Position numbers and translations under genes: made by a program
Assembly: GCA_017526445.1 (NCBI GenBank)
Contig: JAFXRI010000071.1
Coordinates: forward strand, 1-34,707
Reading direction: 5' to 3'
Source: Ruminococcus sp.
Lineage (GTDB): Bacteria; Bacillota; Clostridia; Oscillospirales; Ruminococcaceae
Length of the DNA stretch: 34,707 nt
Shown: positions 17,914-30,905 of the stretch, piece by piece
Layout of the letters: every line of letters starts with the position of its first letter
Numbering within the stretch: the first letter of the stretch is position 1
Notes under the pieces: model-generated
What the model was told of the DNA's origin: nothing
The model's input: only the letters and a program-made list of their open reading frames with translations
The model's database searches: none

Positions 17914-18429
17914 ATGAAGAAACAGTTTATCGCAGCAGCCGCTGCACTCGTACTTTGTGTGGGAGGTCTTGCCTCCTGCGGAGGATCGGACAGCTCGTCC
18001 AAGAGCGATGCTCCCGCAGCCAGCTCTGCTGCTGAGGCTCAGGCCGATGTCACAAAGGATGCGGCTGCAATCGCCGACAAGCTCAAGAGCGATGTTGTCT
18101 GGAAGGATCAGCTCAATGAGCTGGAGAGCGCTATGGTCGAGAAGATAATCGGCGTAAAGCCTGACCTCTATACCGCAGGGAAGGTATATATCGGTGCCGG
18201 CGGAGCCACCGCTGAGGAGATCGCTTGCTTCGAGGGCAAGGACGAGGCCGCTGCCGACAGCATTATGGAGGCTCTTAATAAGCGTATCGAGGCTCAGAAG
18301 AAGGCCTTCGAGAACTATGTTCCCGGTGAGCTGGACAAGCTGGGCTCGGCTGTTCTGGTAAAGCAGGGCAAGTATGTGTTTATGTGCATCTCTGATGAAA
18401 ACGACAAGGCAAAGGAAATAATCGGATAA
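17914..18429 (+). CDS. DUF4358 lipoprotein
   Basis: The 171-residue protein has a lipoprotein signal ending GGLASC at residue 22 or so, a Ser/Ala-rich stretch, then a DUF4358 domain (IADKLKSDVVW, YVFMCISDEN). No function is known for the domain. AAGGAAG precedes the ATG. It lies 24 bp after the SGNH gene and 17 bp before the MBOAT gene; DUF4358 proteins often travel with MBOAT genes in Clostridia, which suggests a helper role in acyl transfer at the membrane, an inference from context. Confidence 0.82.
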   Translation: MKKQFIAAAAALVLCVGGLASCGGSDSSSKSDAPAASSAAEAQADVTKDAAAIADKLKSDVVWKDQLNELESAMVEKIIGVKPDLYTAGKVYIGAGGATAEEIACFEGKDEAAADSIMEALNKRIEAQKKAFENYVPGELDKLGSAVLVKQGKYVFMCISDENDKAKEIIG

Positions 18430-18446
18430 GGGCGGATCGGTAATAA

Positions 18447-19859
18447 ATGCTTTTCAGTAGTACGACCTTTTTGTTCGCATTCCTGTCGCTTGTGCTGATA
18501 TGCTACTATGCAGTGCCGCGTATCGCGAAGAACGCGGTGCTGCTCGTATTCAGCCTTGTATTCTATGCGTGGGGCGAGCCCAAATATGTTTTCCTGATGC
18601 TCGGTTCGATCGTGGTGGCCTACATCACCGGTCTGCTGTGCGACAGGAACAAATACAAAAGTAAGCTGCCGCTTGTTTCGATGATCCTGGCGATCGTCTG
18701 GAACATGGGGCTTTTGCTGTTTTTTAAGTACACAAATTTCTTTATCACGAATGCGAACAATCTGTTCGATCTGAATATAACGCCCCTTGGCCTGACGCTG
18801 CCGATAGGCATTTCCTTCTACAGCTTCCAGACGCTTTCCTATGTTATCGACGTTTACAGGGGCGAGGTGAAGCCGCAGAGGAATTTCCTTAATCTGGCCA
18901 CATATGTCACACTTTTCCCACAGCTCATCGCCGGACCGATCGTGCGCTATCAGACTATCGAGGACCAGCTGGGCTCCCGCAAGGAGAGCTTAGACAAGTT
19001 CGCCCGCGGAGTAAAGCGGTTCGCTGTCGGCCTTGGCAAGAAGGTGATACTGGCCAATAACATCGGTGCGCTGTTTGAGGAGATCTCCTCGGCCGATCAG
19101 TCACAGCTGAGCGTGGCGGGGGTATGGCTGGGTATAATCGCCTATACGTTCCAGATATACTTCGACTTCTCGGGATACTCGGATATGGCTATCGGCCTGG
19201 GCAAGATGTTCGGCTTTGAGTTCCTGGAAAACTTCAATTATCCCTATGTCTCCGATTCGATCACCGAGTTCTGGAGAAGATGGCATATCTCCCTTTCGAC
19301 ATGGTTCCGCGACTATGTGTATATCCCGCTGGGCGGAAACCGCAAGGGCAAGGTGAGACAGTGCGTGAATATTATGCTGGTATGGTTCCTTACCGGATTC
19401 TGGCACGGTGCTAACTGGAACTTTATGATCTGGGGAGTGTATTTCGGCATTATACTGCTGTGTGAGAAGCTGTTCCTGCTCAGAGCGCTGGGTAAGCTGC
19501 CCAGGGTGATAAGACACATATACGCTCTGCTGCTGATAGTCATAGGGTGGGGGATATTCGCCTTTGAGGATACCGACAAACTGATCCGGAACTTCAAGAA
19601 TATGTTCGGCTTCGGCGGTCTGCCTCTGTGGAACGGAAAGAGCGACCTGTTCTGGCTGACACAGAATGTCATACTGCTCGTGATACTCGTTATCGCATCG
19701 GTGCCGCTCTTTAAAAAGCTGGGGGAGATGCTCCGGACAAAGTTCACCGTACCCTACGGATGCGTTGTGGAGCCGATATGTACGGCAGGGATACTGCTCA
19801 TCTCCACCGCATATCTTGCAAGCAACTCGTTCAATCCGTTCTTGTATTTCAGGTTCTGA
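18447..19859 (+). CDS. MBOAT family O-acyltransferase (AlgI/DltB-like)
   Basis: The 470-residue multi-pass membrane enzyme should pass acyl groups, usually acetyl, across the membrane to a surface polymer. The AlgI-like pattern is strong: YSFQTLSYVIDVYRGE, FPQLIAGPIVRY, YFDFSGYSDMAIGLGKMFG, and RRWHISLSTWFRDYVYIPLGG with His280. The catalytic MBOAT histidine is His320 in FWHGANWNF. Full length for the family. It is followed after 15 bp by the DHHW gene, the same pairing as AlgI with AlgJ/AlgX in alginate acetylation. The polymer acylated here is not identified. Confidence 0.93.
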   Translation: MLFSSTTFLFAFLSLVLICYYAVPRIAKNAVLLVFSLVFYAWGEPKYVFLMLGSIVVAYITGLLCDRNKYKSKLPLVSMILAIVWNMGLLLFFKYTNFFITNANNLFDLNITPLGLTLPIGISFYSFQTLSYVIDVYRGEVKPQRNFLNLATYVTLFPQLIAGPIVRYQTIEDQLGSRKESLDKFARGVKRFAVGLGKKVILANNIGALFEEISSADQSQLSVAGVWLGIIAYTFQIYFDFSGYSDMAIGLGKMFGFEFLENFNYPYVSDSITEFWRRWHISLSTWFRDYVYIPLGGNRKGKVRQCVNIMLVWFLTGFWHGANWNFMIWGVYFGIILLCEKLFLLRALGKLPRVIRHIYALLLIVIGWGIFAFEDTDKLIRNFKNMFGFGGLPLWNGKSDLFWLTQNVILLVILVIASVPLFKKLGEMLRTKFTVPYGCVVEPICTAGILLISTAYLASNSFNPFLYFRF

Positions 19860-19874
19860 GGAGGTGCGCTGAGT

Positions 19875-21020
19875 ATGGAAAAGAAGCATCGGCGCATCGC
19901 CGATATCATAATGGCAGCTGTTTTCGTGATCTTCGTGTTCGGGTTCGGGATAGCACTGCTGGTAAAGAACGACAGAGAGTTCTCGGAAATGGAGAACAGA
20001 AATCTTGCGAAAAAGCCGGAGCTAAGCTGGGATAACATAATGGAGGGCAAGTTCACCTCTGAACTGGAGAGTTATATCTCCGACCAGCTGTTCGCTAAGG
20101 ATGCACTCGTATCTGCAAAGACAGATCTTGACCGTCTGCTGGGCAAGACCTATATGAACGGGGTGTATCTGATAAAGGACAGCGACGGCAGGCTCAGGTA
20201 TGTGCAGAAATATACAGAAAACCGTGAACAGCTGGCGGCGAATGCGGCAAGCCTCAACGAGTTCGCTGAAAAAGTGAATGTGCCTGTTGACTTCATGCTG
20301 GTGCCGAATGTTTCAGCGTATATGCTGGATAAGCTCCCTGCGGGCGCCGACTGCGATGACCAGAGCGAGAGCCTTGACTATGTGAAGACGCTTGTGGGGG
20401 ATAAGATAAACTTCTACCCGATGCTGGACAAGGACGGTTTCTCGGAGAACCTGTACTTCCGCACCGATCATCACTGGAGCTTCAGGGGAGCACAGAAGGC
20501 TGTGGGCGATTACCTGGTCAAAAGCGGTCAGATCTCTGATGCCGGAAAGCTTGACATCCCCTTCGGAAAGACACACGAGGGCTTTCTGGGAACGCTCTAC
20601 TCCAAGGCGCCTTCCTCGTTTGCCGAGCCTGATGAATTTGAGTTCTGCACCGCAGAGGATGCGGCAGCAGAAGTTGAGTGGGTAAACGAGGGTAAAAAAT
20701 CGGACAGTATTATCGACAGCAGCTTTCTTGACAAGAAGGATAAGTATGCGGCGCTTTTCGGAGGCAACTTCGGCCAGGTCCGTATAAAGACCGGCCGCGA
20801 GGGTGGGAAGGTCCTCGTGCTGAAGGACAGCTATGCTAATGCAGCGATGCAGTTCTTGATGCAGCAGTACAGCGAGATCACGATGATCGACCTGCGGTAC
20901 TACCATATGCAGGAGAAGGACGTGTCAGAGCTGTGCAGCGAGTACGGGGTGGACAGAGTCATAATGCTCTATAACCTTGACTTCCTAAACGAGGACCGCA
21001 ACTTCGTGTGGCTGACCTGA
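19875..21020 (+). CDS. DHHW family protein (AlgJ/AlgX/DltD-like acylation partner)
   Basis: The 381-residue protein has one N-terminal membrane helix (about residues 10-30) and an extracellular domain. The family name motif is present as TDHHWSF, Asp198-His199-His200. A second block, LKDSYANAA, supplies the probable serine. Together they give the SGNH-like active site seen in AlgJ and AlgX, which finish transfer of acetyl groups to alginate. AGGAGGTG overlaps the MBOAT stop, so the two are translated in step. This is the last gene of the surface acylation set; dus follows after 22 bp. Confidence 0.9.
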   Translation: MEKKHRRIADIIMAAVFVIFVFGFGIALLVKNDREFSEMENRNLAKKPELSWDNIMEGKFTSELESYISDQLFAKDALVSAKTDLDRLLGKTYMNGVYLIKDSDGRLRYVQKYTENREQLAANAASLNEFAEKVNVPVDFMLVPNVSAYMLDKLPAGADCDDQSESLDYVKTLVGDKINFYPMLDKDGFSENLYFRTDHHWSFRGAQKAVGDYLVKSGQISDAGKLDIPFGKTHEGFLGTLYSKAPSSFAEPDEFEFCTAEDAAAEVEWVNEGKKSDSIIDSSFLDKKDKYAALFGGNFGQVRIKTGREGGKVLVLKDSYANAAMQFLMQQYSEITMIDLRYYHMQEKDVSELCSEYGVDRVIMLYNLDFLNEDRNFVWLT

Positions 21021-21042
21021 CGAATACGGAAATGAGCTTTGT

Positions 21043-22026
21043 ATGACAGACAGTATTAAGATCGGAAATGTGGATATCGAGCGCACTGCAGCGCTGGCTC
21101 CTATGGCATCGGTGGCTGACAGGGCTTACAGGCTGATGTGCAGAAGGTTCGGGGCAAGTTATCTTGTCAGCGAGATGATCTCGGCAAAGGGACTTGTTTA
21201 CGGGGACAAGAATACAGCAGAGCTTTGTACCGTCGATGACGGCGAGAGGCCGATGGCCTTGCAGCTGTTCGGTGAGGAGTCGGCATACGTCGGCAAAGCA
21301 GCATATCTTCTCGGTAAATACTCTCCGGATATAATCGACATAAATATGGGCTGTCCTGTACCCAAGATCGTAGGGAACGGCAGCGGCTCGGCACTGATGA
21401 AGGACCCGCTGCGGGCGGAGGAGATCGTCAGGGAGACTGTGAAAAACGCCTGCTGTCCGGTAACTGTGAAGATGCGCATAGGCTGGGACAGAGAGCATAT
21501 CAACGCTGTGGAATTTGCCAGACGCATCGAGCAGGCAGGGGCCTCAGCGATAACCGTTCACGGACGGACGAGAAATGAATTCTATTCAGGGACCGCTGAC
21601 TGGGAAACGATAGCGAAGGTCAAGCAGGCAGTGAGCGTGCCTGTTATCGGCAACGGCGATGTCAGCACAGCAGAGCAGTGCGAAAAGATGTACGAAGTGA
21701 CCGGATGCGATCTGGTCATGATAGGCCGCGGAAGCTATGGCAGGCCCTGGGTGTTTGAACAGGTCAGGCATTATCTCCGCACCGGAGAGATACTCCCCGA
21801 GCCGAAGGTCGAAGAAAAAATGCAGATAATGCTGGAGCATGCGGAGCTGGTATGCAGTTTCAAGGGCGAACGTCAGGGCATCAAGGAGATGCGCCACAAT
21901 TTCGCCTGGTACATAAAGGGACTGCATGGCGCGGCTAAGATGAGAGGACAGTCGGGAGAGCTTGAAACACTTGACGATCTGAGAGCTGCGGCGGAAAAGA
22001 TCGTCGCTGCAAACAGGGGTGAATGA
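21043..22026 (+). CDS. dusB: tRNA-dihydrouridine synthase (DusB type)
   Basis: The 327-residue flavoenzyme reduces specific uridines in the tRNA D-loop to dihydrouridine. The TIM barrel carries LAPMASVADRAYR, the catalytic cysteine in NMGCPVPKIV, NGSGSALMKDP, VKMRIGWD and the FMN phosphate loop GNGDV with GRGSYGRPW. Length is normal. The ribosome site is weak. The stop is separated from the rsmI start by one base, so the two RNA-modifying enzymes are coupled. Confidence 0.93.
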   Translation: MTDSIKIGNVDIERTAALAPMASVADRAYRLMCRRFGASYLVSEMISAKGLVYGDKNTAELCTVDDGERPMALQLFGEESAYVGKAAYLLGKYSPDIIDINMGCPVPKIVGNGSGSALMKDPLRAEEIVRETVKNACCPVTVKMRIGWDREHINAVEFARRIEQAGASAITVHGRTRNEFYSGTADWETIAKVKQAVSVPVIGNGDVSTAEQCEKMYEVTGCDLVMIGRGSYGRPWVFEQVRHYLRTGEILPEPKVEEKMQIMLEHAELVCSFKGERQGIKEMRHNFAWYIKGLHGAAKMRGQSGELETLDDLRAAAEKIVAANRGE

Positions 22027-22027
22027 A

Positions 22028-22858
22028 ATGGGCAAGCTGTACGTTGTGGGCACACCGATAGGAAACCTGGGGGATATGACCTACCGGGCGGTGGAAACAC
22101 TGAAAAGCGTGGACTTTATCTGTGCCGAGGACACACGGGTGAGTGCCGGACTGCTCAACCATTTTGAGATCAGAAAGCCACTTATCAGCTATCACGAACA
22201 CAATGCCCGTCAGGCTGGTGACGGTATATGCGAGCGGATCCTTGCGGGAGAGAATGCGGCGATAATCACCGATGCGGGTATGCCGTGCATTTCCGATCCC
22301 GGGGAGGATCTTGTGAAGCTCTGTGCGCTGAGAGGGATAGACGTGGAGGTTGTCCCGGGGCCGACGGCAGCGATGTCGGCCGTGGCGGTGAGCGGACTGT
22401 CCACAGCGAGATTTCAGTTTGAGGGCTTTCTGTCGGTAACAAAAAAGCAGAGGATGGAACGTCTGGCTCTTGTCAAGGACAGTACTGCAACGCTGATATT
22501 CTATGAGGCGCCCCATAAACTGCTGGCTACACTTGAGGATATGCTGGAGTTTTTTGGAGACAGACGTATCTCGCTGTGCAGGGAACTGACAAAGATTCAC
22601 GAGGAAGTGATCCGCACAACTCTTTCCGAGGCAGTTGAGTACTACCGCTCCAACAAGCCCAAGGGCGAATTTGTACTGGTCATTGAGGGTGCGGAGAAGA
22701 CTGCCGCAGCCGAGACCGTTGAGGAAGCTTTTGCTCAGGTAGAGGCACTGGTCGAAAAGGGTATGCGGGGAGCAGATGCCTGCAAGCAGATCGCAAAGGC
22801 TACGGGCTTTTCCAAAGGAGAATTGTATAGTATGCTCCTTGGCAAAAATACATTATAA
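22028..22858 (+). CDS. rsmI: 16S rRNA 2'-O-ribose C1402 methyltransferase
   Basis: The 276-residue methyltransferase modifies the ribose of C1402 in 16S rRNA, in the ribosomal P site. The tetrapyrrole-methylase fold motifs are VVGTPIGNLGDMTYRA, AEDTRVSAGLL, SYHEHN, IITDAGMPCISDPG and VPGPTAAMSA. The start at 22028 follows AGGGGTGA; the in-frame GTG at 22019 lies inside that ribosome site. Its stop codon TAA falls within the first palindrome of the paired-repeat region that precedes rimI. Confidence 0.95.
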   Translation: MGKLYVVGTPIGNLGDMTYRAVETLKSVDFICAEDTRVSAGLLNHFEIRKPLISYHEHNARQAGDGICERILAGENAAIITDAGMPCISDPGEDLVKLCALRGIDVEVVPGPTAAMSAVAVSGLSTARFQFEGFLSVTKKQRMERLALVKDSTATLIFYEAPHKLLATLEDMLEFFGDRRISLCRELTKIHEEVIRTTLSEAVEYYRSNKPKGEFVLVIEGAEKTAAAETVEEAFAQVEALVEKGMRGADACKQIAKATGFSKGELYSMLLGKNTL

Positions 22859-22897
22859 GGTATTAGGCTGAAATGAAAAATACCGTATATGGTATTT
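22846..22897. promoter_or_regulatory. Paired inverted repeats upstream of rimI
   Basis: Two copies of ATACM-N6-GGTAT: ATACATTATAAGGTAT (22848-22863) and ATACCGTATATGGTAT (22880-22895), centres 22855.5 and 22887.5, exactly 32 bp apart. The second is AAATACC...GGTATTT over 20 bp and ends 10 bp before the rimI ATG. The spacer differs from the other two pairs. Possible cooperative operator pair or tandem RNA hairpins. Confidence 0.8.
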
Positions 22898-22907
22898 GGT
22901 GATATTT

Positions 22908-23354
22908 ATGACTGTATTAAGAGATATGCAGCTCGCGGACTGTGCCGCTGTTGCTGAGATAGACAAGAGCTGTTTTTCGATACCGCTTTCAAAAGAGGGC
23001 TATGAACGGGAGTACACAAATCCCAACTCGACGACCATTGTTGCAGAGCGTGACGGCAGGATCATAGGCTTTGCAAATGTATGGAATATCTGCGGCGATG
23101 TGACTCTCAACAACATAGCTGTCATTGAGGAAGAGCGTTCAAACGGCGTAGGTTCGATGCTCCTGCGGGAAGTTCTTGCCAGATATGCGGGCTGTGATTT
23201 TGTCACGCTTGAGGTCAGGAGATCCAACGAGGGTGCGATAAAGCTCTACAAGAGCTTCGGCTTCAGACAGGTCGGGATCAGAAAGGATTTTTACGATCTG
23301 CCAAAAGAGGATGCTCTGCTGATGACTGTCTTTCTTGAAGACGCGCGGAGGTGA
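22908..23354 (+). CDS. rimI: Ribosomal-protein-alanine N-acetyltransferase-type GNAT
   Basis: The 148-residue GNAT enzyme would acetylate the N-terminal alanine of ribosomal protein S18 in the RimI family. It has NNIAVIEEERSNGVGSMLL (acetyl-CoA loop; the usual RGxG is SNGVG) and the late LEVRRSNEGAIKLYKSFGF block typical of RimI. I place the start at the ATG at 22908; a frame open from 22896 includes the palindrome. The ribosome site is poor (GGTGAT). In Firmicutes rimI often sits with tsaB, tsaE and tsaD; here tsaD is two genes on, while tsaB and tsaE are not in the window. Confidence 0.88.
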   Translation: MTVLRDMQLADCAAVAEIDKSCFSIPLSKEGYEREYTNPNSTTIVAERDGRIIGFANVWNICGDVTLNNIAVIEEERSNGVGSMLLREVLARYAGCDFVTLEVRRSNEGAIKLYKSFGFRQVGIRKDFYDLPKEDALLMTVFLEDARR

Positions 23355-23358
23355 GCAG

Positions 23359-24072
23359 ATGAAATACGATGACTTTACAGTCGAGAAGCTGCACGACGGG
23401 ATCGAGATCGTGATCTCCACCGAGCACCGCTTCGGAACAGATGCTTTTCTTTTAGCCGACTTTGCTGCACCGAGACACAAGGATACAGTATGTGACTTCT
23501 GCACCGGCAGCGGTATAATCGCGCTGCTGATGTACCAGAATTTTAAACCCAGGCACATAGATGCTGTCGAGATACAGGAGAAGGCTCACGAGCAGCTCAG
23601 GCTTTCCCTCGAAAGAACGGGAATCGACTGTATAACGCCTATACTCGGCGATCTGAAGTATTACCGCCCTGAAAAGGAGCTTGATCTTATCACCTGTAAT
23701 CCGCCCTACAAGATCAGCGGTACAGGAGCAAAAAATGAAACCGAGGCTGTTACGATAGCGAGACATGAAGAGCTTTGCACTATCAATGATGTGTGTGCTG
23801 CCGCCAAGCGCTCGCTCAGGTTCGGAGGAAGACTGTGCATCTGCAACCGCCCCGAGAGACTTTGTGATATAATGGTCGCTATGCGGTCAAACGGCATTGA
23901 GCCGAAACGGGTGAGATTTGTCAGCAAGGATCCGCAGTCTGCGCCCTGGCTCGTTCTTGTGGATGGACGAAAGGGAGGCAGCAGCTTCCTGAAAGTGGAG
24001 CCTCAGCTTTATACACAGAACCCTGACGGAAGTTTCACAGAAGAGATGCGAAAGATATACAGACAGATATGA
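23359..24072 (+). CDS. tRNA1(Val) A37 N6-methyltransferase-like (TrmN6/YfiC family)
   Basis: The 237-residue SAM-dependent enzyme has FGTDAFLLADF near the start, motif I DFCTGSGIIALL, the acidic VEIQE at the end of the second strand and the N6-adenine motif CNPPY. This is the TrmN6/YfiC pattern; members methylate A37 of tRNA1(Val) in E. coli, but clostridial members have not all been tested. GGAGGTGAG precedes the ATG, 4 bp after the rimI stop. It is co-transcribed with rimI and lies between two paired-repeat regions. Confidence 0.9.
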   Translation: MKYDDFTVEKLHDGIEIVISTEHRFGTDAFLLADFAAPRHKDTVCDFCTGSGIIALLMYQNFKPRHIDAVEIQEKAHEQLRLSLERTGIDCITPILGDLKYYRPEKELDLITCNPPYKISGTGAKNETEAVTIARHEELCTINDVCAAAKRSLRFGGRLCICNRPERLCDIMVAMRSNGIEPKRVRFVSKDPQSAPWLVLVDGRKGGSSFLKVEPQLYTQNPDGSFTEEMRKIYRQI

Positions 24073-24123
24073 TATACCATATACGGTATTTTGCATATGT
24101 GATAAATACCTCATATGGTATTT
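24072..24123. promoter_or_regulatory. Paired inverted repeats upstream of tsaD
   Basis: ATACCATATACGGTAT (24074-24089) and ATACCTCATATGGTAT (24106-24121), centres 24081.5 and 24113.5, again 32 bp apart. The first begins at the stop codon of the methyltransferase gene; the second ends directly before the tsaD ribosome site GGAGATGAG. Confidence 0.83.
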
Positions 24124-24135
24124 GGAGATGAGACT

Positions 24136-25152
24136 ATGAAGATACTTGCTATTGAGTCCTCCTGTGATGAGACAGCCTGTGCTGTCGTAGAGGACGGAGT
24201 GAATGTGCTTTCAAATATTGTTGCGACACAGATAGCCGAGCATCGGCTGTACGGCGGTGTTGTGCCGGAGATCGCTTCACGGAGACACGCTGAATCCATC
24301 AGCCAGGTCGTGAGCAAAGCCCTTGCTGATGCTTCCTGCACGCTCGATGACGTGGATGCCATAGCGGTGACATATGCCCCCGGTCTGATCGGGGCTCTGC
24401 TTGTGGGGATCAGCTTTGCAAAAGGGCTGGCGCTCTCTTCCGGCAAGCCGCTGATACCGGTGCATCACATCGCAGGTCACATCGCGGCGAATTATATTTC
24501 GCACCCGGACCTGGAGCCGCCGTATCTCTGTCTTGTTGTGAGCGGGGGACATTCCCATATCGTTGAGGTGCTTGACAGGACACGCTACCGTGTTGTGGGG
24601 AGAACTCACGACGATGCGGCGGGAGAGTGCTTTGACAAGGTCGCCAGAACGCTGGGGTATGAATATCCCGGAGGGAAATTCATAGACAAGGCCTCGAAGA
24701 TCGGAAACGCAAATGCCTTTAGATTTCCTCACCCGAAGGTGGACGGCTGCGAGTACGATTTCTCGTTCTCGGGACTGAAAACCGCAGTCATAAACCTTGT
24801 ACACAATTCGGTGCAGAAGGGGACCGAGCTTGTCAGAGAGGATGTAGCTGCATCCTTCCAGCGCACTGTCTGCGAGATTCTGGTGGGAAAGACTATGAAA
24901 GCTGCCGAGGATCTCGGATATAAAACTATCGCCCTCGCCGGAGGTGTCTCCGCCAACACGGGAGTGCGTGATGCTTTGCAGTCGGCCTGTGACGACAGAC
25001 GTCTGACACTGTATATGCCGGAGCTCAGATACTGCGGCGACAATGCAGCGATGATCGGCTGCCAGGGCTATTTCGATTATCTTGCCGGAAAACGTGCCGA
25101 TCAGTCGCTGAACGGCATTGCAACGCTTTCGTTGGAGAAGATCTCGGAGTGA
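24136..25152 (+). CDS. tsaD: tRNA N6-adenosine threonylcarbamoyltransferase
   Basis: The 338-residue ASKHA-fold enzyme transfers the threonylcarbamoyl group to A37 of ANN-decoding tRNAs, together with TsaB and TsaE. Motifs: IESSCDETACAVV, GGVVPEIASRRH, the iron-binding histidines in HHIAGHIAAN, VSGGHSHIVE, the phosphate loop GGVSANTGVR, and the late DNAAMIG. The start at 24136 follows GGAGATGAG; the ATG at 24115 lies inside the second palindrome. Full length for the family. Confidence 0.96.
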   Translation: MKILAIESSCDETACAVVEDGVNVLSNIVATQIAEHRLYGGVVPEIASRRHAESISQVVSKALADASCTLDDVDAIAVTYAPGLIGALLVGISFAKGLALSSGKPLIPVHHIAGHIAANYISHPDLEPPYLCLVVSGGHSHIVEVLDRTRYRVVGRTHDDAAGECFDKVARTLGYEYPGGKFIDKASKIGNANAFRFPHPKVDGCEYDFSFSGLKTAVINLVHNSVQKGTELVREDVAASFQRTVCEILVGKTMKAAEDLGYKTIALAGGVSANTGVRDALQSACDDRRLTLYMPELRYCGDNAAMIGCQGYFDYLAGKRADQSLNGIATLSLEKISE

Positions 25153-25157
25153 TATTT

Positions 25158-25209
25158 AAATACCGTATGCGGTATTTTTACTAACAAATAAATACACTAT
25201 ATGGTATTC
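25158..25209. promoter_or_regulatory. Paired inverted repeats upstream of polA
   Basis: ATACCGTATGCGGTAT (25160-25175) and ATACACTATATGGTAT (25192-25207), centres 25167.5 and 25199.5, 32 bp apart. The second ends just before the polA ribosome site AGGAGGTG. Confidence 0.83.
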
Positions 25210-25221
25210 AGGAGGTGCGGT

Positions 25222-27765
25222 ATGAAACTGCTTGCCATTGACGGGAACAGTATAATGAACAGGGCCTTTTACGGAGTGAAGGGACTTACTAACTCAAAGG
25301 GTATCCCGACTAATGCACTTACAGGCTTTATGAACATATATCTTAAAGAGATAGGAGAGGTGGAGCCTGACTGCGTCGCTGTGGCCTTTGATCTGCGTGC
25401 GCCGACGTTCAGACACAAAGCTGACGCGTCCTACAAGGCTAACCGCAAGGGAATGCCCGATGAACTTGCACAGCAGATGCCGCTTATCAAAAAGCTGCTG
25501 ACGCTGCTCGGCATAAAGATCGTTGAGTGTGAGGGATACGAGGCTGATGATATGCTCGGAACGCTTTCAAAAGCTGCATCCGACAGCGGCAATGAGTGTT
25601 ATATCCTTACCGGGGACCGCGACAGCTTTCAGCTTGTTTCGGAGAAGGTGACGGTGCGCCTTGCCGGTACAAAGGAAACGAAGATCTATACTCCTGCACG
25701 TATCAATGAGGAGTACGGCGTTTCACCGAGACAGATGATCGAGGTCAAGGCCCTTATGGGTGACAGCTCGGACAACATCTCGGGCGTTAAGGGTATCGGT
25801 GAAAAGACTGCGCTCTCGTTGATCCAGCAGTGCGGCTCTGTTGACGAACTGTACGAAAAGTTGGACAAGATCAGTCTGTCTGCTTCGGTCCGCACAAAGC
25901 TTGAGAACGGCCATGAAGATGCGCTCAACAGCCGTTTCCTGGCGGAGATATGCCTTGAAGCACCCATAGACACCGAGATCGGTGACTACGTGCCGGGATC
26001 AGCGGATGCGGATGCAGTAAAGGAGCTTCTCGTTGATTTGGAAATGCTGAAACTGCTTGACCGTTTGAAGCTGGGCAGCGGTGCCGATGTGCCTGCCGAG
26101 CCGGAACAGAAGCTCAGAACGGAAGACCTGGTAAAGTATGAGATCTGCGATCTTGACGGGGATACTATCAAAAGCTTTGCCGGGGAGAAGAGCTTTTTCA
26201 TTTTTGCTGACGGTGTACTGTCAGTTGCCTGCGGACAGAAGCTTTACCGCACCGGGGATGACTCGCTGATATTAGCGTACCTGACCTCTGAGGGCGAAAA
26301 GCAGTGCTTTGAGGGGAAGGCAGCCCATAAGGCCGCTATGGAAGCCGGAAAAGAGCTTCTGCATCTCACCTTTGCCTGTGACCTGGCAGGGTATCTGCTC
26401 AACTCCCAGTCCAGCGAATACACTCCGGAGAGCCTGGCCCTCACATATAAGACCGTTTACCGCTCGGATATGGGTGAATATGCTGACATAGCAACGCTTC
26501 CCGCGCTTTGCACCTGCCTGCTTTCTCAGCTGGAGACAACGGGGATGATGAAGCTGTATAATGACATCGAGCTGCCGCTGTGCGAGGTGCTGGCTTCTAT
26601 GGAAGTATGCGGAGTCAGAGCCGATGCCGACGGTATCAGGCAGTTCGGGAAAATGCTCGAAGGAGATATCGAGGATATAAGCCGCAGGATATACGAGTAT
26701 GCTGGCAGGGAGTTCAATATACTCTCACCCAAGCAGCTTGGAGTTGTGCTGTTTGAAGATCTGAAGCTCCCCAACAAAAAGAAGACCAAGACCGGATACT
26801 CCACTAATGCTGAGGTCCTGGAAGCCATTGCCGACAAGCATCCTGTCGTCCCGCTGGTGCTGGAATACCGCACGCTCACGAAACTGCAGTCCACTTATGT
26901 TGAGGGACTGCTCAAAGAGATCAGGAGCGATGGGAGGGTACACAGCATATTCAAGCAGACCGAAACAAGGACAGGCCGTATCTCGTCGGCCGAGCCGAAT
27001 ATGCAGAACATTCCCGTCCGTAAGGAACTGGGGAGGAATATGCGCAAGTTTTTCATCGCCGAAGAGGGCAATACCCTGGTCGATGCCGATTACAGTCAGA
27101 TCGAGCTGAGAGTCCTGGCTTCCGTCTGCGGCGACGGGAATATGCAGGCGGCCTTCAAAGAGGGCCGGGACATCCACCGCTCCACCGCGGCTCAGGTGTT
27201 CGACCTTCCCGAGGATTTTGTCACCCCGGAGATGCGCTCGGCGGCAAAGGCCGTCAACTTCGGTATCATCTACGGCATCGGTGCATTCTCACTCTCAAAG
27301 GACATCGGTGTATCAGTGGCCGAGGCGAAGAGATATATACAGAATTACCTGGACAACTTCTCGAAAGTGTCCGAATTTATGGACAAGACAGTCGAGGACG
27401 GGATCAGGAACGGGTATGTTACTACGATCTTCGGACGAAGAAGGATGATACCGGAGCTCAGATCCTCCAACAAAGTTATGCAGGCCTTCGGAAAGCGTGC
27501 CGCAATGAATGCTCCCATTCAGGGCGCAGCTGCCGACATTATCAAACTGGCAATGGTGGCTGTTTACAGGAGACTTAAAGCTGAAAAGCTCGATGCGAGA
27601 CTTATTTTGCAGGTACACGACGAGCTTATAATCGAATGCCGTGAGGAGCTGGCGGAGCAGGTCTCGGCACTGCTCAAAGAAGAAATGGAAAATGCCGTAA
27701 AACTGGCTGTTCCCATGACCGCCGATGTTCACAGCGGAAAAAGCTGGTATATAGCCAAGGGCTGA
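25222..27765 (+). CDS. polA: DNA polymerase I
   Basis: The 847-residue polymerase fills gaps and removes RNA primers. Residues 1-290 are the 5' nuclease domain (IDGNSIMNRAFYG, EGYEADDMLGTL, GDRDSFQL, GDSSDNISGVKGIGEKTA). The middle (about 300-470) has the fold of the 3'-5' exonuclease, but I see none of its acidic catalytic motifs, so proofreading is probably absent, as in Bacillus and Taq enzymes. The polymerase part has motif A VDADYSQIELR (Asp623), the O helix KAVNFGIIYG and motif C QVHDELIIE (Asp800). The start at 25222 follows AGGAGGTG. Confidence 0.97.
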   Translation: MKLLAIDGNSIMNRAFYGVKGLTNSKGIPTNALTGFMNIYLKEIGEVEPDCVAVAFDLRAPTFRHKADASYKANRKGMPDELAQQMPLIKKLLTLLGIKIVECEGYEADDMLGTLSKAASDSGNECYILTGDRDSFQLVSEKVTVRLAGTKETKIYTPARINEEYGVSPRQMIEVKALMGDSSDNISGVKGIGEKTALSLIQQCGSVDELYEKLDKISLSASVRTKLENGHEDALNSRFLAEICLEAPIDTEIGDYVPGSADADAVKELLVDLEMLKLLDRLKLGSGADVPAEPEQKLRTEDLVKYEICDLDGDTIKSFAGEKSFFIFADGVLSVACGQKLYRTGDDSLILAYLTSEGEKQCFEGKAAHKAAMEAGKELLHLTFACDLAGYLLNSQSSEYTPESLALTYKTVYRSDMGEYADIATLPALCTCLLSQLETTGMMKLYNDIELPLCEVLASMEVCGVRADADGIRQFGKMLEGDIEDISRRIYEYAGREFNILSPKQLGVVLFEDLKLPNKKKTKTGYSTNAEVLEAIADKHPVVPLVLEYRTLTKLQSTYVEGLLKEIRSDGRVHSIFKQTETRTGRISSAEPNMQNIPVRKELGRNMRKFFIAEEGNTLVDADYSQIELRVLASVCGDGNMQAAFKEGRDIHRSTAAQVFDLPEDFVTPEMRSAAKAVNFGIIYGIGAFSLSKDIGVSVAEAKRYIQNYLDNFSKVSEFMDKTVEDGIRNGYVTTIFGRRRMIPELRSSNKVMQAFGKRAAMNAPIQGAAADIIKLAMVAVYRRLKAEKLDARLILQVHDELIIECREELAEQVSALLKEEMENAVKLAVPMTADVHSGKSWYIAKG

Positions 27766-27784
27766 CAGAGAGCGGGGGAAAAAA

Positions 27785-28288
27785 GTGAGACTGATACCTT
27801 TTATTGCCGGGCGCGATTTTGATATAATAAAATACTGGATAACCGATGAACGCACCCACGCTTTCTGGAGCGGCAACAGGATACCTTATCCAATGGAGCG
27901 GGAGAGCTTTGAAAAGTTCTTCGCCGGTCTTTCGCAGCAGTGGGGAGATACACCCTTTATTGCCGCCGACGATAATGGCAGAGCCGTGGGCTTCCTGTCG
28001 ATGGCCCTTGATCTTGCCTCCGGGGAGATGATGCTCAAATTCATCGTTGTTGATCCGCAGCTCAGGGGGAAAGGCATTGCACAGCAGATGCTTGCTCTCG
28101 CTGTAAAATATGCATTTGAGATCGCCGATGCCGGGGCAGTACAGCTTATGGTATTCCCCGAGAATGTAAGGGCAATGAAATGCTATGAGAAGGCGGGCTT
28201 CTCTGTTCGCCGTACCGACCGCGATGCGTTCAGGTTCGGGGACGAGCTGTGGAGCAGATGCAATATGATCTTGAAACGGAACAGGTGA
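27785..28288 (+). CDS. GNAT family acetyltransferase
   Basis: The 167-residue protein starts at GTG after GCGGGGGAAAA. It has the RimJ/RimL-like opening (WITDERTHAFWSGN) and the acetyl-CoA loop VVDPQLRGKGIAQQML, then FPENVRAMKCYEKAGF. The substrate is unknown. It follows polA by 19 bp and precedes the ABC gene by 5 bp, so it is probably read from the polA transcript. Confidence 0.85.
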   Translation: MRLIPFIAGRDFDIIKYWITDERTHAFWSGNRIPYPMERESFEKFFAGLSQQWGDTPFIAADDNGRAVGFLSMALDLASGEMMLKFIVVDPQLRGKGIAQQMLALAVKYAFEIADAGAVQLMVFPENVRAMKCYEKAGFSVRRTDRDAFRFGDELWSRCNMILKRNR

Positions 28289-28293
28289 GAAAT

Positions 28294-28995
28294 ATGCCAT
28301 TTGTTGAATTCAAAAATGTATATAAACGCTATAAAATGGGCGAGGTCATCATAAACGCCAGCGACGGCGTTGACTTCGGGATCGAGAAGGGTGAGTTCGT
28401 CGTGATAGTCGGAGCTTCCGGCGCAGGCAAGACCACTATCCTCAATATGCTGGGCGGTATGGACACCTGCGACGAAGGGGAGATAATCGTTGACGGAAAA
28501 AACATCGCTGCTTACTCAAAGAAGGAGCTGACAGCATACAGACGCTACGATATTGGTTTCGTGTTCCAGTTCTACAACCTTGTCGGGAACCTGACAGCCA
28601 AGGAGAACGTGGAGCTGGCGGCACAGATAACCAAGGATGCGGCGGATGCGGCGGAGGTGCTCAAAAGCGTGGGCCTTGAAGACAGGATGAACAACTTCCC
28701 CTCCCAGCTTTCCGGCGGTGAACAGCAGCGTGTATCCATAGCGAGAGCACTTGCCAAGAACCCCAAACTCCTCCTGTGTGACGAGCCTACAGGAGCACTG
28801 GATTACAACACCGGCAAGACGATCTTAAAGCTCCTTCAGGACACCTGCCGTCAGGATAAGATGACAGTTATCGTTATCACCCACAATATGGCCATAGCCC
28901 CGATGGCAGACCGAATAATCCACATCAAGAACAGCAAGGTCAGCAGCGTGAAGCTCAATCCCTCACCGGTGAGCGTCGAGACCATAGAGTGGTGA
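28294..28995 (+). CDS. ABC transporter ATPase, MacB/LolD-like, without adjacent permease
   Basis: The 233-residue ATPase has Walker [10 protein letters not shown], the Q loop [19 protein letters not shown], signature [16 protein letters not shown], Walker [13 protein letters not shown] and the switch histidine in VITHN. The Q-loop wording is that of ATPases serving FtsX-like permeases (antimicrobial-peptide or lipoprotein export). No permease follows: a strong terminator starts 16 bp after the stop. The ATG at 28294 follows GGTGAG. Its partner is either elsewhere or lost. Confidence 0.9.
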
Positions 28996-29010
28996 TCTTC
29001 CGCGAAAGCA

Positions 29011-29081
29011 ACGGCTGCTGCAAGACTGACAGAACAGAGCATCACAGCCCTGATCTGCATCTTGCAGCAGCCGTTTTTTTT
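29011..29081 (+). terminator. Strong long-stem terminator
   Basis: ACGGCTGCTGCAAGA (29011-29025) pairs perfectly over 15 bp with TCTTGCAGCAGCCGT (29060-29074), loop of about 34 nt, followed by eight T. It ends the polA-GNAT-ABC transcript. Confidence 0.88.
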
Positions 29082-29086
29082 CTTTA

Positions 29087-29147
29087 GGGCAATACCGCAC
29101 AACCCCTGTGCGTCAGAGGCGCAAGCCGCGGGTTGTGCGGTGTTGCC
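29087..29147. mobile_element. 61-bp deleted copy of the palindromic element, flanked by TTA
   Basis: The arms GGCAATACCGCACAACCC (29088-29105) and GGGTTGTGCGGTGTTGCC (29130-29147) match over 17 of 18 positions. The sequence between joins the left arm of the long copy (ending CGTCAG) to its right arm (AGGCGCAAG), as if the core had been lost between two CAG repeats. TTA stands on each side (29084-29086 and 29148-29150), a possible 3-bp target duplication. Confidence 0.8.
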
Positions 29148-29195
29148 TTAGCATTATTCTGAAATAGCATCCGCTTTACGGATTGCTACAATTTG

Positions 29196-29223
29196 ATTAT
29201 AGCATACAGGGAAAAAAAGTCAA
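29196..29223 (-). promoter_or_regulatory. Minus-strand promoter reading into the 61-bp element
   Basis: TTGACT (29223-29218) and TATAAT (29201-29196), spacer 16 bp. No gene lies downstream on this strand; the transcript would cross the element and run antisense to the ABC gene end. Confidence 0.6.
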
Positions 29224-29239
29224 GTACCATTCTGGTACT
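29223..29239. promoter_or_regulatory. Inverted repeat between divergent promoters
   Basis: AGTACC-ATTCT-GGTACT is a perfect 17-bp inverted repeat that touches the -35 box of the minus-strand promoter and lies 23 bp upstream of the plus-strand -35 box. Possible operator. Confidence 0.5.
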
Positions 29240-29261
29240 CTCGGTTTGGATCTTTATATGC

Positions 29262-29290
29262 TTGCAATTATCGCCAAGCTGTGATATTAT
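29262..29290 (+). promoter_or_regulatory. Promoter of the adenylyltransferase fusion gene
   Basis: TTGCAA (29262-29267) and TATTAT (29285-29290), spacer 17 bp, with TG one base before the -10 box. Confidence 0.78.
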
Positions 29291-29357
29291 AAAATACAGG
29301 GGAGCAAGTCTTCGGAAAGCTCCGCCCGTATCAGGACGATGAAAGGAGAGCTTTGCA

Positions 29358-30905
29358 ATGAACGGCAGCACTGACCGCTATGCGGACATAAAAAACAGGA
29401 TATGCGAACTCGCCGGATCGGATGACAGCATACTTGCAGTGGCAGTCATCGGTTCCTCGACGAGAAAGGATACTCCTGCCGACGAGTATTCAGATCTTGA
29501 TCTTATCATCATGACAGACGAGCCTGAAAGGTGGTATTCCGGGGAATACCCGGAAATGCTCGGAGAGGTAAGCATATCATTTATCGAGCCGACGCTGGGC
29601 GGAGGCAGAGAAAGACGCTGTATATACAGCGGAGCCCGGGATGTCGATATGCTGATCTTTACTCACGGACAGTTCGTCGAAGCTCTTGAAAAGGGCGTTG
29701 CCGGCTGGGTGATGAACCGCGGATACAGGTTCCTCTATGATTCCCGGGGATATGAGGCGCTGGCGGAAAAACATGTGGATATGACGGTGAAACGGCCTTC
29801 CATGACCGAGGAGGAGTTTCAGAATATCACCGGGGATTTCTATTTCCATAACATCTGGGCATACAAAAAGCTGCTCCGCGGAGAGCTGTGGTCGGCTAAG
29901 ATGTGCATAGACGCTTATCTGAAAGTCCGCCTGCTCACAATGATCGAGCAGTATCAGCTGTCAGCAGGGAATACCGATGTCTGGCACGACGGCAGGTTCC
30001 TCGACCGCTGGGCAGATACTTCGGTCCTCGGGGAGCTGGAGCATTGTTTCGCTCACTACAGTACCGATGACTGCAAACAGGCTCTTTATGCCACCCACAG
30101 GCTTTTTGCAAGGCTTGCATCTGCCGTCGCCCGTAAGCGGTCGTTCAGCTATCCGGCCGGTGCCGAAAAGTGTGCGGCAGAGTTCATAGGCATATCTGCG
30201 CCGGAGGAGGTATTTGAAAGCGGCTTTGCAAGATGTGAATACATCGGAAAGGACAACGCCGTTTTGCACGTCTGGAAAAAGGAAGCCCATTTCAGCGACT
30301 ACCGCCTTCCCGTGACGGCATCGCTGGATATGCTGAGAAAGCACAAGGGCAGCATCTTCATAGTGGATGCGAGAAACGGCTTTGAGGACGTCAGGGAGGA
30401 TGTGGATTGGGGCTTTGAGTATTTCCTGCCGGAGCTTAAAAAGACCGGCTGTGAGGTATGGGGTTTCATCCTGCCGGAGGTGTCAAACATCGAGGGAGAG
30501 ATCGACCTCTGGACGCGAGAGATCGAGAAGAACTTTTTTGTCATCAGAGCTGAGAGCTATGAGCAGATACTCCGTGCTGCCGCCGAACGCTTCGGCTGTC
30601 TTGAATACACCGGCAGCGCAGATGCGACGCTTTACTACACCTATAAGGGATGCAGATACAGGTTGGCTTCGCAGCCATATGAGCCTTGCCTGTACATAAT
30701 TGACGGAGAAAGGATCGTCTGCACTCTGCACAATGCCTTCAATACGTCGGAGCTGATCGGTGCTTTCTCTGAGGGAAAAACTGTCAGAGCCATTGACGGC
30801 AGGATATATGACGAGAGGACATTTTGCAGACTTCTGGCATCGGCTGTGGACAGCGGCCGGTCGGATATGGATGTGACCTTTGCCGCCAGGCAGGCTGGGA
30901 TATGA
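29358..30905 (+). CDS. AadE-like nucleotidyltransferase fused to an uncharacterised C-terminal module
   Basis: The 515-residue protein begins with an aminoglycoside 6-adenylyltransferase-like domain (about 1-275): AVIGSSTRKD, then DEYSDLDLIIM with the metal-binding aspartates, and GARDVDMLIFT, where a further acidic residue sits. From about 285 to 400 comes a different domain (IVDARNGFEDVREDVDWGFEYFLPEL), similar in feel to STAS/SEC14-like proteins that exist singly in Clostridia. A third part (about 420-500) is unrecognised. AAGGAGAG precedes the ATG. Family knowledge allows antibiotic adenylylation, but most chromosomal relatives have no proven resistance role, and the fusion argues for another job. 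Confidence 0.75.
   Translation: MNGSTDRYADIKNRICELAGSDDSILAVAVIGSSTRKDTPADEYSDLDLIIMTDEPERWYSGEYPEMLGEVSISFIEPTLGGGRERRCIYSGARDVDMLIFTHGQFVEALEKGVAGWVMNRGYRFLYDSRGYEALAEKHVDMTVKRPSMTEEEFQNITGDFYFHNIWAYKKLLRGELWSAKMCIDAYLKVRLLTMIEQYQLSAGNTDVWHDGRFLDRWADTSVLGELEHCFAHYSTDDCKQALYATHRLFARLASAVARKRSFSYPAGAEKCAAEFIGISAPEEVFESGFARCEYIGKDNAVLHVWKKEAHFSDYRLPVTASLDMLRKHKGSIFIVDARNGFEDVREDVDWGFEYFLPELKKTGCEVWGFILPEVSNIEGEIDLWTREIEKNFFVIRAESYEQILRAAAERFGCLEYTGSADATLYYTYKGCRYRLASQPYEPCLYIIDGERIVCTLHNAFNTSELIGAFSEGKTVRAIDGRIYDERTFCRLLASAVDSGRSDMDVTFAARQAGI

What the first reader, a model, noticed from the sequence alone, without database searches (positions are those of the whole stretch)
22846..25209. Three pairs of ATACC-N6-GGTAT palindromes, each pair spaced exactly 32 bp, before rimI, tsaD and polA
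All three non-coding gaps in this stretch hold two copies of the inverted repeat. Centres are 22855.5/22887.5, 24081.5/24113.5 and 25167.5/25199.5. The spacing is 32 bp each time, about three helical turns, and the second copy always stops just short of the ribosome site. The DNA between the two copies is different in each gap, so the spacing is not the trace of a recent duplication. A shared regulator binding as two dimers on one face of the helix would fit; so would a tandem hairpin acting on the mRNA. I know no named regulator with this site. If real, it would link tRNA/ribosome modification (RimI, TrmN6-like, TsaD) with DNA polymerase I.
Basis: partly seen in the sequence, partly recalled or inferred. 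Interest (0 to 1): 0.82.

Follow-up and report, generated by a model that had tools for sequence, protein, structure and literature searches.

The report
NrdR-type operators before rimI, tsaD, polA
In this genome of a likely Ruminococcus, three close-set genes for ribosome modification, tRNA modification and DNA polymerase I each carry a paired palindromic DNA site, and the pairs are probably operators of NrdR, the repressor known for sensing the cell's DNA building blocks, so translation upkeep would be tied to DNA-precursor supply.

Summary
In detail: six 16-bp palindromes form three pairs, centres exactly 32 bp apart, before rimI, tsaD and polA. Four boxes fit ATACC-N6-GGTAT exactly; two have one mismatch. 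No other such pair was found in the own genome (78% complete). In 16 same-genus genomes a blind pattern finds 24 pairs, all before these genes. Spacers are 15-17 bp in 31 of 32 tabulated pairs, their sequence not conserved. That is the architecture of an NrdR-box pair. The genus's nrdR and nrdD promoters carry pairs of the same spacing. A matrix from other genomes' nrdR boxes ranks the window pairs 1-3 in 321 kb of the own genome. Against: nrdD-only matrices rank them 5-7, or 47-61 with second nrdD boxes alone, and positions 5-6 differ from nrd boxes. RNA hairpins are disfavoured: no covariation. CsoR/CstR-type operators share the ends and the 32 bp but have G/C-rich cores. Best reading: the NrdR regulon extends to rimI, tsaD and polA. 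Binding is untested.

The parts
22848..22863 (.). box 1 of the rimI pair, ATACATTATAAGGTAT (overlaps the end of rsmI)
22880..22895 (.). box 2 of the rimI pair, ATACCGTATATGGTAT
24074..24089 (.). box 1 of the tsaD pair, ATACCATATACGGTAT
24106..24121 (.). box 2 of the tsaD pair, ATACCTCATATGGTAT
25160..25175 (.). box 1 of the polA pair, ATACCGTATGCGGTAT
25192..25207 (.). box 2 of the polA pair, ATACACTATATGGTAT
22019..22858 (+). rsmI (16S rRNA cytidine-1402 2'-O-methyltransferase), gene before the first pair; start as in the ORF list
   Evidence: TIGR00096, 266.7 bits over cut-off 167.9
22908..23354 (+). rimI, probable target
   Evidence: TIGR01575, 111.3 bits over cut-off 86.4
23335..24072 (+). 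TrmN-like methyltransferase abutting rimI, no pair of its own; start as in the ORF list, a later ATG at 23359 is more likely
   Evidence: weak NF047853 hit, 54 bits under its cut-off of 350
24136..25152 (+). tsaD, probable target
   Evidence: TIGR03723, 426.4 bits over cut-off 296.1 (given with the longer ORF from 24115)
25222..27765 (+). polA, probable target
   Evidence: TIGR00593, 901.7 bits over cut-off 600 (given with the longer ORF from 25201)

Best explanation
The three 32-bp-spaced palindrome pairs are most likely NrdR operators that would let the dATP-sensing repressor NrdR restrain rimI-trmN, tsaD and polA together with the ribonucleotide reductase gene nrdD and its own gene nrdR. 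Shown here: the pairs, their 31-33 bp spacing in relatives, their restriction to these three genes in the genomes searched, and same-spaced pairs of related sequence at nrdR and nrdD promoters of the same genus. Inferred from the solved S. coelicolor complex: when dATP is plentiful, an ATP/dATP-loaded NrdR tetramer puts one Zn-ribbon dimer on each box, its D15/R17 read the C4/G13 pairs, and each box is kinked by about 90 degrees. Inferred and weaker: since the gaps hold no clear promoter and box 2 ends just before the ribosome-binding site, the bound tetramer would either block a weak promoter inside the gap or stall RNA polymerase arriving from the gene upstream. When dATP falls, NrdR would oligomerise differently, leave the DNA, and let all targets be expressed.
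For: (1) Architecture. Published NrdR sites are mostly two boxes with 15-16 bp between them, and four NrdRs bind best at 15-17 bp (PMC12051234). Here 21 of 32 tabulated genus pairs have a 16-bp spacer, 6 have 15, 4 have 17 and one has 3. Some rows came from searches limited to spacings near 32; where spacing was left free from 18 to 45 bp, 17 of 18 box-bearing rimI and polA upstreams had their best pair at 31-33 bp. (2) Base pairs 9 apart that NrdR D15/R17 read (PMC9110341) correspond to C4/G13, present in 64 of 64 boxes (partly built in, because the search patterns contain them). (3) The own genome has one NrdR that keeps D15, R17 and RRRR and is 46% identical to a solved NrdR; each of 16 genus genomes has one match, 15 over cut-off and one a fragment. 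(4) nrdD promoters: 15 of 15 examined (of 16 genomes) have ATACTATATACTTG over the -10, and a [CA][CT]AC...TTGTG box exactly 32 bp on in 14, 31 bp on in G004. (5) nrdR promoters: anchored on GGTATA[AC]T alone, found in 13 of 16, a second [TC]AC[ACT]A half-site lies at +31 or +32 in 11 of 13. (6) A matrix from nrdR boxes of other genomes ranks the three window pairs 1, 2, 3 in 321 kb of the own genome, ahead of its own nrdR site at rank 4. (7) Other genera: 18 of 292 family genomes outside the genus match the blind ATAC pair (reversed control: 13 matches), and in 6 of the 18 an nrdD-like ORF (5; two at 70-74% identity, three at 23-25%) or nrdR (1; 80%) starts 34-172 bp after the pair. (8) A passage of PMC4898720 names polA among genes clustered with nrdR in some bacteria.
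Against: No binding or expression data. A matrix from nrdD boxes alone ranks the pairs 5-7, below one background site and just above another; one from second nrdD boxes alone (5 distinct boxes) ranks them 47, 51 and 61. Cluster boxes prefer C at position 5 (47 of 64) and G, A or T at 6, whereas nrd boxes prefer A or T at 5 and A at 6. The ATAC half-site is not the textbook ACAC half-site (recalled). The nrdR boxes were first picked by an AYAC pattern, which favours ATAC; one search is the check least touched by that. Three nrdR promoters (G010, G014, G015) have no such site and were left out of the matrix. In the other family loci with a readable nrdR start (47 of them, G000 and G009 apart) the AYAC scan found no convincing pair. 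In Proteobacteria NrdR was never found autoregulated (PMC5343134, passage). 3 of 14 genomes with tsaD, all with NrdR, lack the tsaD pair, and 5 of 14 readable polA upstreams have no pair. G009 polA has two boxes only 19 bp apart. 32-bp pairing is not unique to NrdR: CsoR/CstR-type sites show it too.
Confidence: 0.66

Rival explanations
1. A different, undescribed transcription factor dedicated to this cluster binds as two dimers; its site merely resembles NrdR boxes.
For: Positions 5-6 of the cluster boxes differ from those of nrd boxes; nrdD-only matrices rank the pairs 5-7 or 47-61; full ATAC pairs found by pattern in 16 genomes all stand at these three genes; some genomes with NrdR lack them. 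Paired 32-bp sites exist for other regulators.
Against: The nrdR-trained matrix ranks the pairs 1-3; 31-33 bp spacing and C4/G13 are those of NrdR sites; none of the 10 ORFs given from window 19875-30905 looks like a regulator, though the rest of the window was not annotated.
Confidence: 0.24
2. The palindromes are tandem RNA hairpins (or one box1-box2 hairpin) acting on translation or mRNA stability.
For: The gaps fold somewhat better than shuffles (z -1.27 to -4.87 over six folds, five at -2.19 or lower), with box1-box2 stems, and box 2 ends just before the ribosome site.
Against: Mirrored variable positions do not covary within boxes (complementary at both 5/12 and 6/11 in 9 of 64). Cross-box stems pair no better than with shuffled partners (2917 and 2927 of 3000 shuffles reach the observed Watson-Crick count for the outer and inner stem). 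The best fold z is on the minus strand. No Rfam match at gathering score.
Confidence: 0.05
3. CsoR/CstR-type (copper or persulfide sensor) operators.
For: A scan of one genome per species in GTDB for exact ATACC-N6-GGTAT pairs at 32 bp found 78 stretches, 59 of them in records that I place by name in Actinomycetota; 47 of the 78 share one ORF cluster that I name by eye as disulfide-reductase or rhodanese-like.
Against: Those sites have G/C-rich cores (70 of 80 pairs with at least 5 of 12 core bases G or C), as CsoR operators have G-tracts (abstract of PMC3902906); the five pairs of this genus in the scan have 1-4 of 12, and rimI, tsaD and polA are no sulfur or copper genes.
Confidence: 0.03
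4. Repeat family or recent duplication without regulatory function.
For: Three similar pairs in one stretch of 2.4 kb.
Against: Spacer sequences are unrelated while their length is kept; pairs persist in 11 genomes, and at polA even where some 0.5 kb, apparently another gene, lies between tsaD and polA (G005, G011).
Confidence: 0.02

Closest known systems
NrdR-box pair of ribonucleotide reductase operons (S. coelicolor nrdRJ, E. coli nrdHIEF, L. monocytogenes nrdDG)
   Same: Two 16-bp imperfect palindromes, 15-17 bp spacer, C4/G13, AT-rich centre; pairs of this kind at nrdR and nrdD in the same genus.
   Different: Sits before rimI, tsaD and polA, not before RNR genes; half-site ATACC rather than the ACAC type (recalled); no clear promoter at the site; box 2 ends just before the ribosome site.
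NrdR link to polA and other replication genes (passage in PMC4898720)
   Same: polA is named among genes clustered with nrdR in some bacteria.
   Different: Here polA carries its own box pair on another contig than nrdR, and tsaD and rimI join it; no paper listed names tsaD or rimI as NrdR targets as far as titles and abstract starts show.
CsoR/CstR operators
   Same: Paired pseudo-palindromes with ATACC...GGTAT ends at 32 bp (the family name is my reading).
   Different: G/C-rich core, different target genes.

Membership tests
NrdR operator (NrdR-box pair) | Two 16-bp palindromic boxes | tested here: met
NrdR operator (NrdR-box pair) | Spacer of 15-17 bp between boxes (three helical turns centre to centre) | tested here: met
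   16 bp in the window; 31 of 32 genus pairs have 15-17 bp, 17 of 18 with spacing left free; rule
NrdR operator (NrdR-box pair) | Conserved G-C base pairs 9 apart, read by D15/R17 | tested here: met
   C4/G13 in the six window boxes and in 64 of 64 genus boxes (partly built into the search); rule
NrdR operator (NrdR-box pair) | Genome encodes NrdR with D15, R17 and RRRR | tested here: met
NrdR operator (NrdR-box pair) | Same motif as the genome's own nrd promoters | tested here: inconclusive
   nrdR-trained matrix: ranks 1-3; nrdD-trained: 5-7; second nrdD box only: 47-61
NrdR operator (NrdR-box pair) | Usual (not defining) place: before ribonucleotide reductase genes or nrdR | tested here: not met
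   The pairs precede rimI, tsaD and polA; nrdD and nrdR have their own pairs elsewhere
NrdR operator (NrdR-box pair) | dATP-dependent NrdR binding and repression | not testable with these tools
   needs protein and DNA
CsoR/CstR operator | G-tract (G/C-rich) core between the half-sites | tested here: not met
   this genus's cores 1-4 G/C of 12 against at least 5 in 70 of 80 pairs of the collection scan
Structured cis-acting RNA | Compensatory changes in stems | tested here: not met
   no Rfam match at gathering score

The most novel reading that the evidence does not exclude
In rumen Ruminococcus the dNTP sensor NrdR has left its RNR-only role and, through promoter-less operator pairs placed between co-directional genes, acts as a kinked-DNA roadblock that ties tRNA t6A synthesis, ribosomal S18 acetylation and DNA polymerase I to the dATP pool, so that one sensor coordinates translation upkeep and DNA synthesis.
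Probability: 0.3. Interest if true: 0.75.

Novelty: new variant of a known kind. Interest (0 to 1): 0.56.

Why it matters
NrdR is described as an RNR-specific repressor in the structural papers whose abstracts and passages I read. A conserved extension to tsaD, rimI and polA would mean that a dATP sensor sets tRNA and ribosome modification along with DNA synthesis, and it gives defined DNA probes for a direct binding test. It would also show that NrdR pairs may work inside gene runs, away from obvious promoters.

Tried and rejected
RNA hairpin reading: rejected for lack of covariation. CsoR/CstR reading: considered after the collection scan, rejected on core composition and gene context. Canonical sigma-70 promoter in the gaps: the scan of 18400-29400 shows no + strand site in the three gaps; it shows one minus-strand site (TTTTCA-16-TATAAT, 10 of 12) across the rimI pair. 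With looser rules one 9-of-12 + strand candidate, TTGGCA-16-TATTAG at 22839, has its -10 at the end of rimI box 1; the best tsaD candidate ends before the pair; polA reaches 8 of 12. Class I/II RNR (PF02867) in the own genome: none found in the 78% complete assembly. PolA tree of 14 genomes: pair-bearing genomes (11, by their rimI/tsaD pairs) lie on both sides of the midpoint root, two changes needed, 72 of 500 shuffles as low, so gain or loss history is not resolved. nrdR upstreams of 50 fetched loci (one unreadable; G000 and G009 among them) scanned with an AYAC pair: best mismatch counts 1 (G009) and 3 (G000); one other locus (L058) also scored 3 but its first box is not a palindrome; the other 46 scored 4 or worse. 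The other 12 of the 18 family matches outside the genus do not precede an nrd gene by BLAST, about as many as the reversed control gives; two of them have ATACC-like boxes (G172 before a NifH-like ORF, G226 near a CotJC-like ORF, both named by eye). The gapped pattern covered spacers of 14-16 bp only, so 17-bp spacers (G004; G009 tsaD) come. rimI upstreams were not examined in G002, G003, G007, G014 and G015. Rows left out or odd in the matrices: nrdD of G014 (71 bp of upstream), nrdR of G010, G014 and G015 (no pair), the one-base-shifted G004 nrdD second box (in one search, left out of the nrdD-only set), and a G007 second nrdR box that lies 28 bp, not 31-32, from the first but has the same letters as that of G002. 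The -35 column printed is a script error and was not used.
Full report
Observation. Six 16-bp palindromes sit at the stated places and form three pairs, each with a 16-bp spacer and centres 32 bp apart. Four are exact ATACC-N6-GGTAT; the first box before rimI and the second before polA have one mismatch each. With up to two mismatches the window has 32 matches against 9.15 +/- 2.51 in 100 shuffles. The first box overlaps the end of rsmI. The genes are dusB, rsmI, rimI, a TrmN-like methyltransferase (weak, under cut-off), tsaD and polA. Two corrections: the spacing is 31-33 bp in relatives, not always 32, and the first gap is not wholly non-coding.

Specificity. In the own genome (2.14 Mb, 78% complete) the ATAC-N8-GTAT pair at 32 bp, up to two mismatches, occurs only at these three places; the reversed-pattern control gives 3 at two mismatches and 0 at one. 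In 16 same-genus genomes a pattern allowing spacers of 14-16 bp finds 24 pairs in 10 genomes (reversed control 2). All 24 stand before rimI, tsaD or polA: most by BLAST of the next ORF, the G013 and G008 tsaD pairs by reading the TsaD start, and the G013 and G009 rimI pairs by reading the RimI start.

Conservation. Direct reading adds pairs with 15- and 17-bp spacers and one-mismatch pairs. tsaD: 11 of the 14 genomes with a TsaD over cut-off have a pair at 31-33 bp; G002, G007 and G015 do not; G003 and G014 had no tsaD over cut-off. polA: of 14 readable upstreams 8 have a 31-33 bp pair, G009 has two boxes 19 bp apart, and 5 have none (G002, G007, G008, G010, G014, the last with only 51 bp of upstream); G003 and G015 could not be read. 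rimI: pairs in 11 genomes, two pairs in G009; five genomes not examined. Of the 32 pairs tabulated, spacers are 16 (21), 15 (6), 17 (4) and 3 (1) bp. The tsaD rows came from a search limited to 31-33 bp and some rimI rows from patterns; where spacing was left free from 18 to 45 bp, 17 of 18 box-bearing rimI and polA upstreams had the best pair at 31-33 bp. Spacer sequences are unrelated between genes and genomes. The polA pair stays with polA where about 0.5 kb, apparently another gene, lies between tsaD and polA (G005, G011).

Protein or RNA. Across 64 boxes positions 1-4 and 13-16 are nearly fixed and C4 and G13 are invariant, in part because the searches contain them. The variable mirrored positions 5/12, 6/11 and 7/10 do not covary, nor do the strands of a box1-box2 stem. 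Six folds of the gaps score z -1.27 to -4.87, the lowest on the minus strand. Rfam gives nothing at gathering score. The halves vary one by one, as expected of a protein dimer on DNA.

Which regulator. The usual published NrdR site is two boxes with 15-16 bp between them; four NrdRs bind best at 15-17 bp (abstract and Discussion of PMC12051234). In the S. coelicolor complex D15 and R17 read G-C pairs nine apart in each box, and each box is kinked by close to 90 degrees (passages of PMC9110341). The own genome has one NrdR with D15, R17 and RRRR; the 16 same-genus genomes have one match each, 15 over cut-off and one a fragment. Their nrdD promoters, 15 examined of 16, have ATACTATATACTTG over the -10; in 14 a box of the CCAC/ACAC/ATAC...TTGTG type stands exactly 32 bp on, in G004 31 bp. 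Their nrdR promoters have a GGTATA[AC]T anchor in 13 of 16, and a second [TC]AC[ACT]A half-site at +31 or +32 in 11 of those 13, five other offsets once each.

Matrix test. A symmetrised matrix from nrdR and nrdD boxes (33 distinct) puts the three window pairs at 29.3, 27.9 and 26.1 bits against 14.2 for the next window site and a simulated maximum of 11.9 +/- 2.2 (largest 20.7 of 60). In 321 kb of the own genome the list runs: tsaD pair, nrdR, polA pair, rimI pair, nrdD, then 21.5 and 20.2. With nrdR boxes only and G000 left out, the window pairs rank 1-3; with nrdD boxes only they rank 5-7, among background scores; with second nrdD boxes only they rank 47, 51 and 61. So they resemble nrdR-type boxes and not the CCACAA type. 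The nrdR boxes were first chosen with an AYAC pattern, a bias that largely avoids.

Other genera. In 297 family genomes the blind ATAC pair (up to one mismatch) matches in 21, 18 of them outside the genus (of 292 such); the reversed control has 13 matches. In 6 of the 18 an nrd ORF starts 34-172 bp after the pair: nrdD-like in 5 (two at 70-74% identity, three at 23-25%) and nrdR in 1. Hence ATAC-type pairs do mark nrd genes elsewhere; the other 12 are about what the control gives. Against generality, nrdR upstreams of 47 other family loci show no convincing AYAC pair.

Look-alikes. A scan of one genome for each of 84,980 species for exact ATACC-N6-GGTAT pairs found 78 stretches (80 pairs). Placing the records by name, 59 are Actinomycetota, 17 Bacillota and 2 unplaced; 47 of the 78 share an ORF cluster within 3.5 kb that I name by eye as disulfide-reductase or rhodanese-like; 70 of 80 pairs have at least 5 of 12 core bases G or C, as in CsoR-type operators (abstract of PMC3902906). 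Ten pairs have fewer: five of this genus's type in three records (L137 and L192, labelled Ruminococcus sp. from goat and sheep rumen, and L145, labelled uncultured Clostridia), and five in Paenibacillus, Clostridium (2), Natroniella and Bacillus records with other cores. The letters of L137, L145 and L192 recur in same-genus genomes G001, G013 and G005, which is why I call the genus likely Ruminococcus. The window's own record may be left out of that scan. So 32-bp pairing by itself does not name the regulator.

Mechanism. Shown: sites, spacing, gene set, sequence kinship with nrdR sites. Inferred: NrdR binding with dATP. Weakly inferred: how it acts. The gaps hold no clear + strand promoter and lie between co-directional genes, box 2 ending just before the ribosome site, so a roadblock or repression of a weak gap promoter are both open.

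Novelty. Searches of the held library for NrdR with Ruminococcus, NrdR with tsaD or rimI and NrdR with regulon or polA terms listed no paper on this, judged from titles and abstract starts of the papers shown. I read passages of PMC5343134, PMC3616900, PMC12176259 and PMC4898720. The 2005 phylogenetic-profiling paper on NrdR was not seen; I recall that it named a few non-RNR targets. Files as a new variant of a known kind.

Noticed in passing
L006:11531-11601 (G000 contig C33, nrdD promoter): The nrdD promoter of the own genome has a third box, a second CCACAAGATGTTGTGT copy 23 bp after the first; by eye the 14 other same-genus nrdD promoters printed with enough upstream lack it.
   Followed up: partly
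L006:11066-11112: A further NrdR-like pair (TCGCTATATATAGTGT and ATACACTATTTTGTTG, 31 bp apart) scores 21.5 bits about 580 bp upstream of nrdD, with no obvious gene start of its own.
   Followed up: partly
L010 (G009:C174:27037-27171) and L257: One relative has two complete pairs in tandem before rimI, 87 bp apart, and at polA two identical boxes only 19 bp apart.
   Followed up: partly
L115-L192 (collection scan): Exact ATACC-N6-GGTAT pairs at 32 bp with G/C-rich cores recur in Actinomycetota (59 of 78 stretches by record name), many near oxidoreductase-type ORFs; they look like a widespread CsoR/CstR-type double operator with fixed spacing.
   Followed up: partly
family genomes: NrdR scores against TIGR00244 spread from 220 down to 150 bits across the family; the own genus (about 161-169 bits for full-length copies) is near the low end and has two residues fewer before RRRR than a solved NrdR.
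   Followed up: no
window 29358-30905: ORF weakly similar to aminoglycoside 6-adenylyltransferase models, far below their cut-offs.
   Followed up: no
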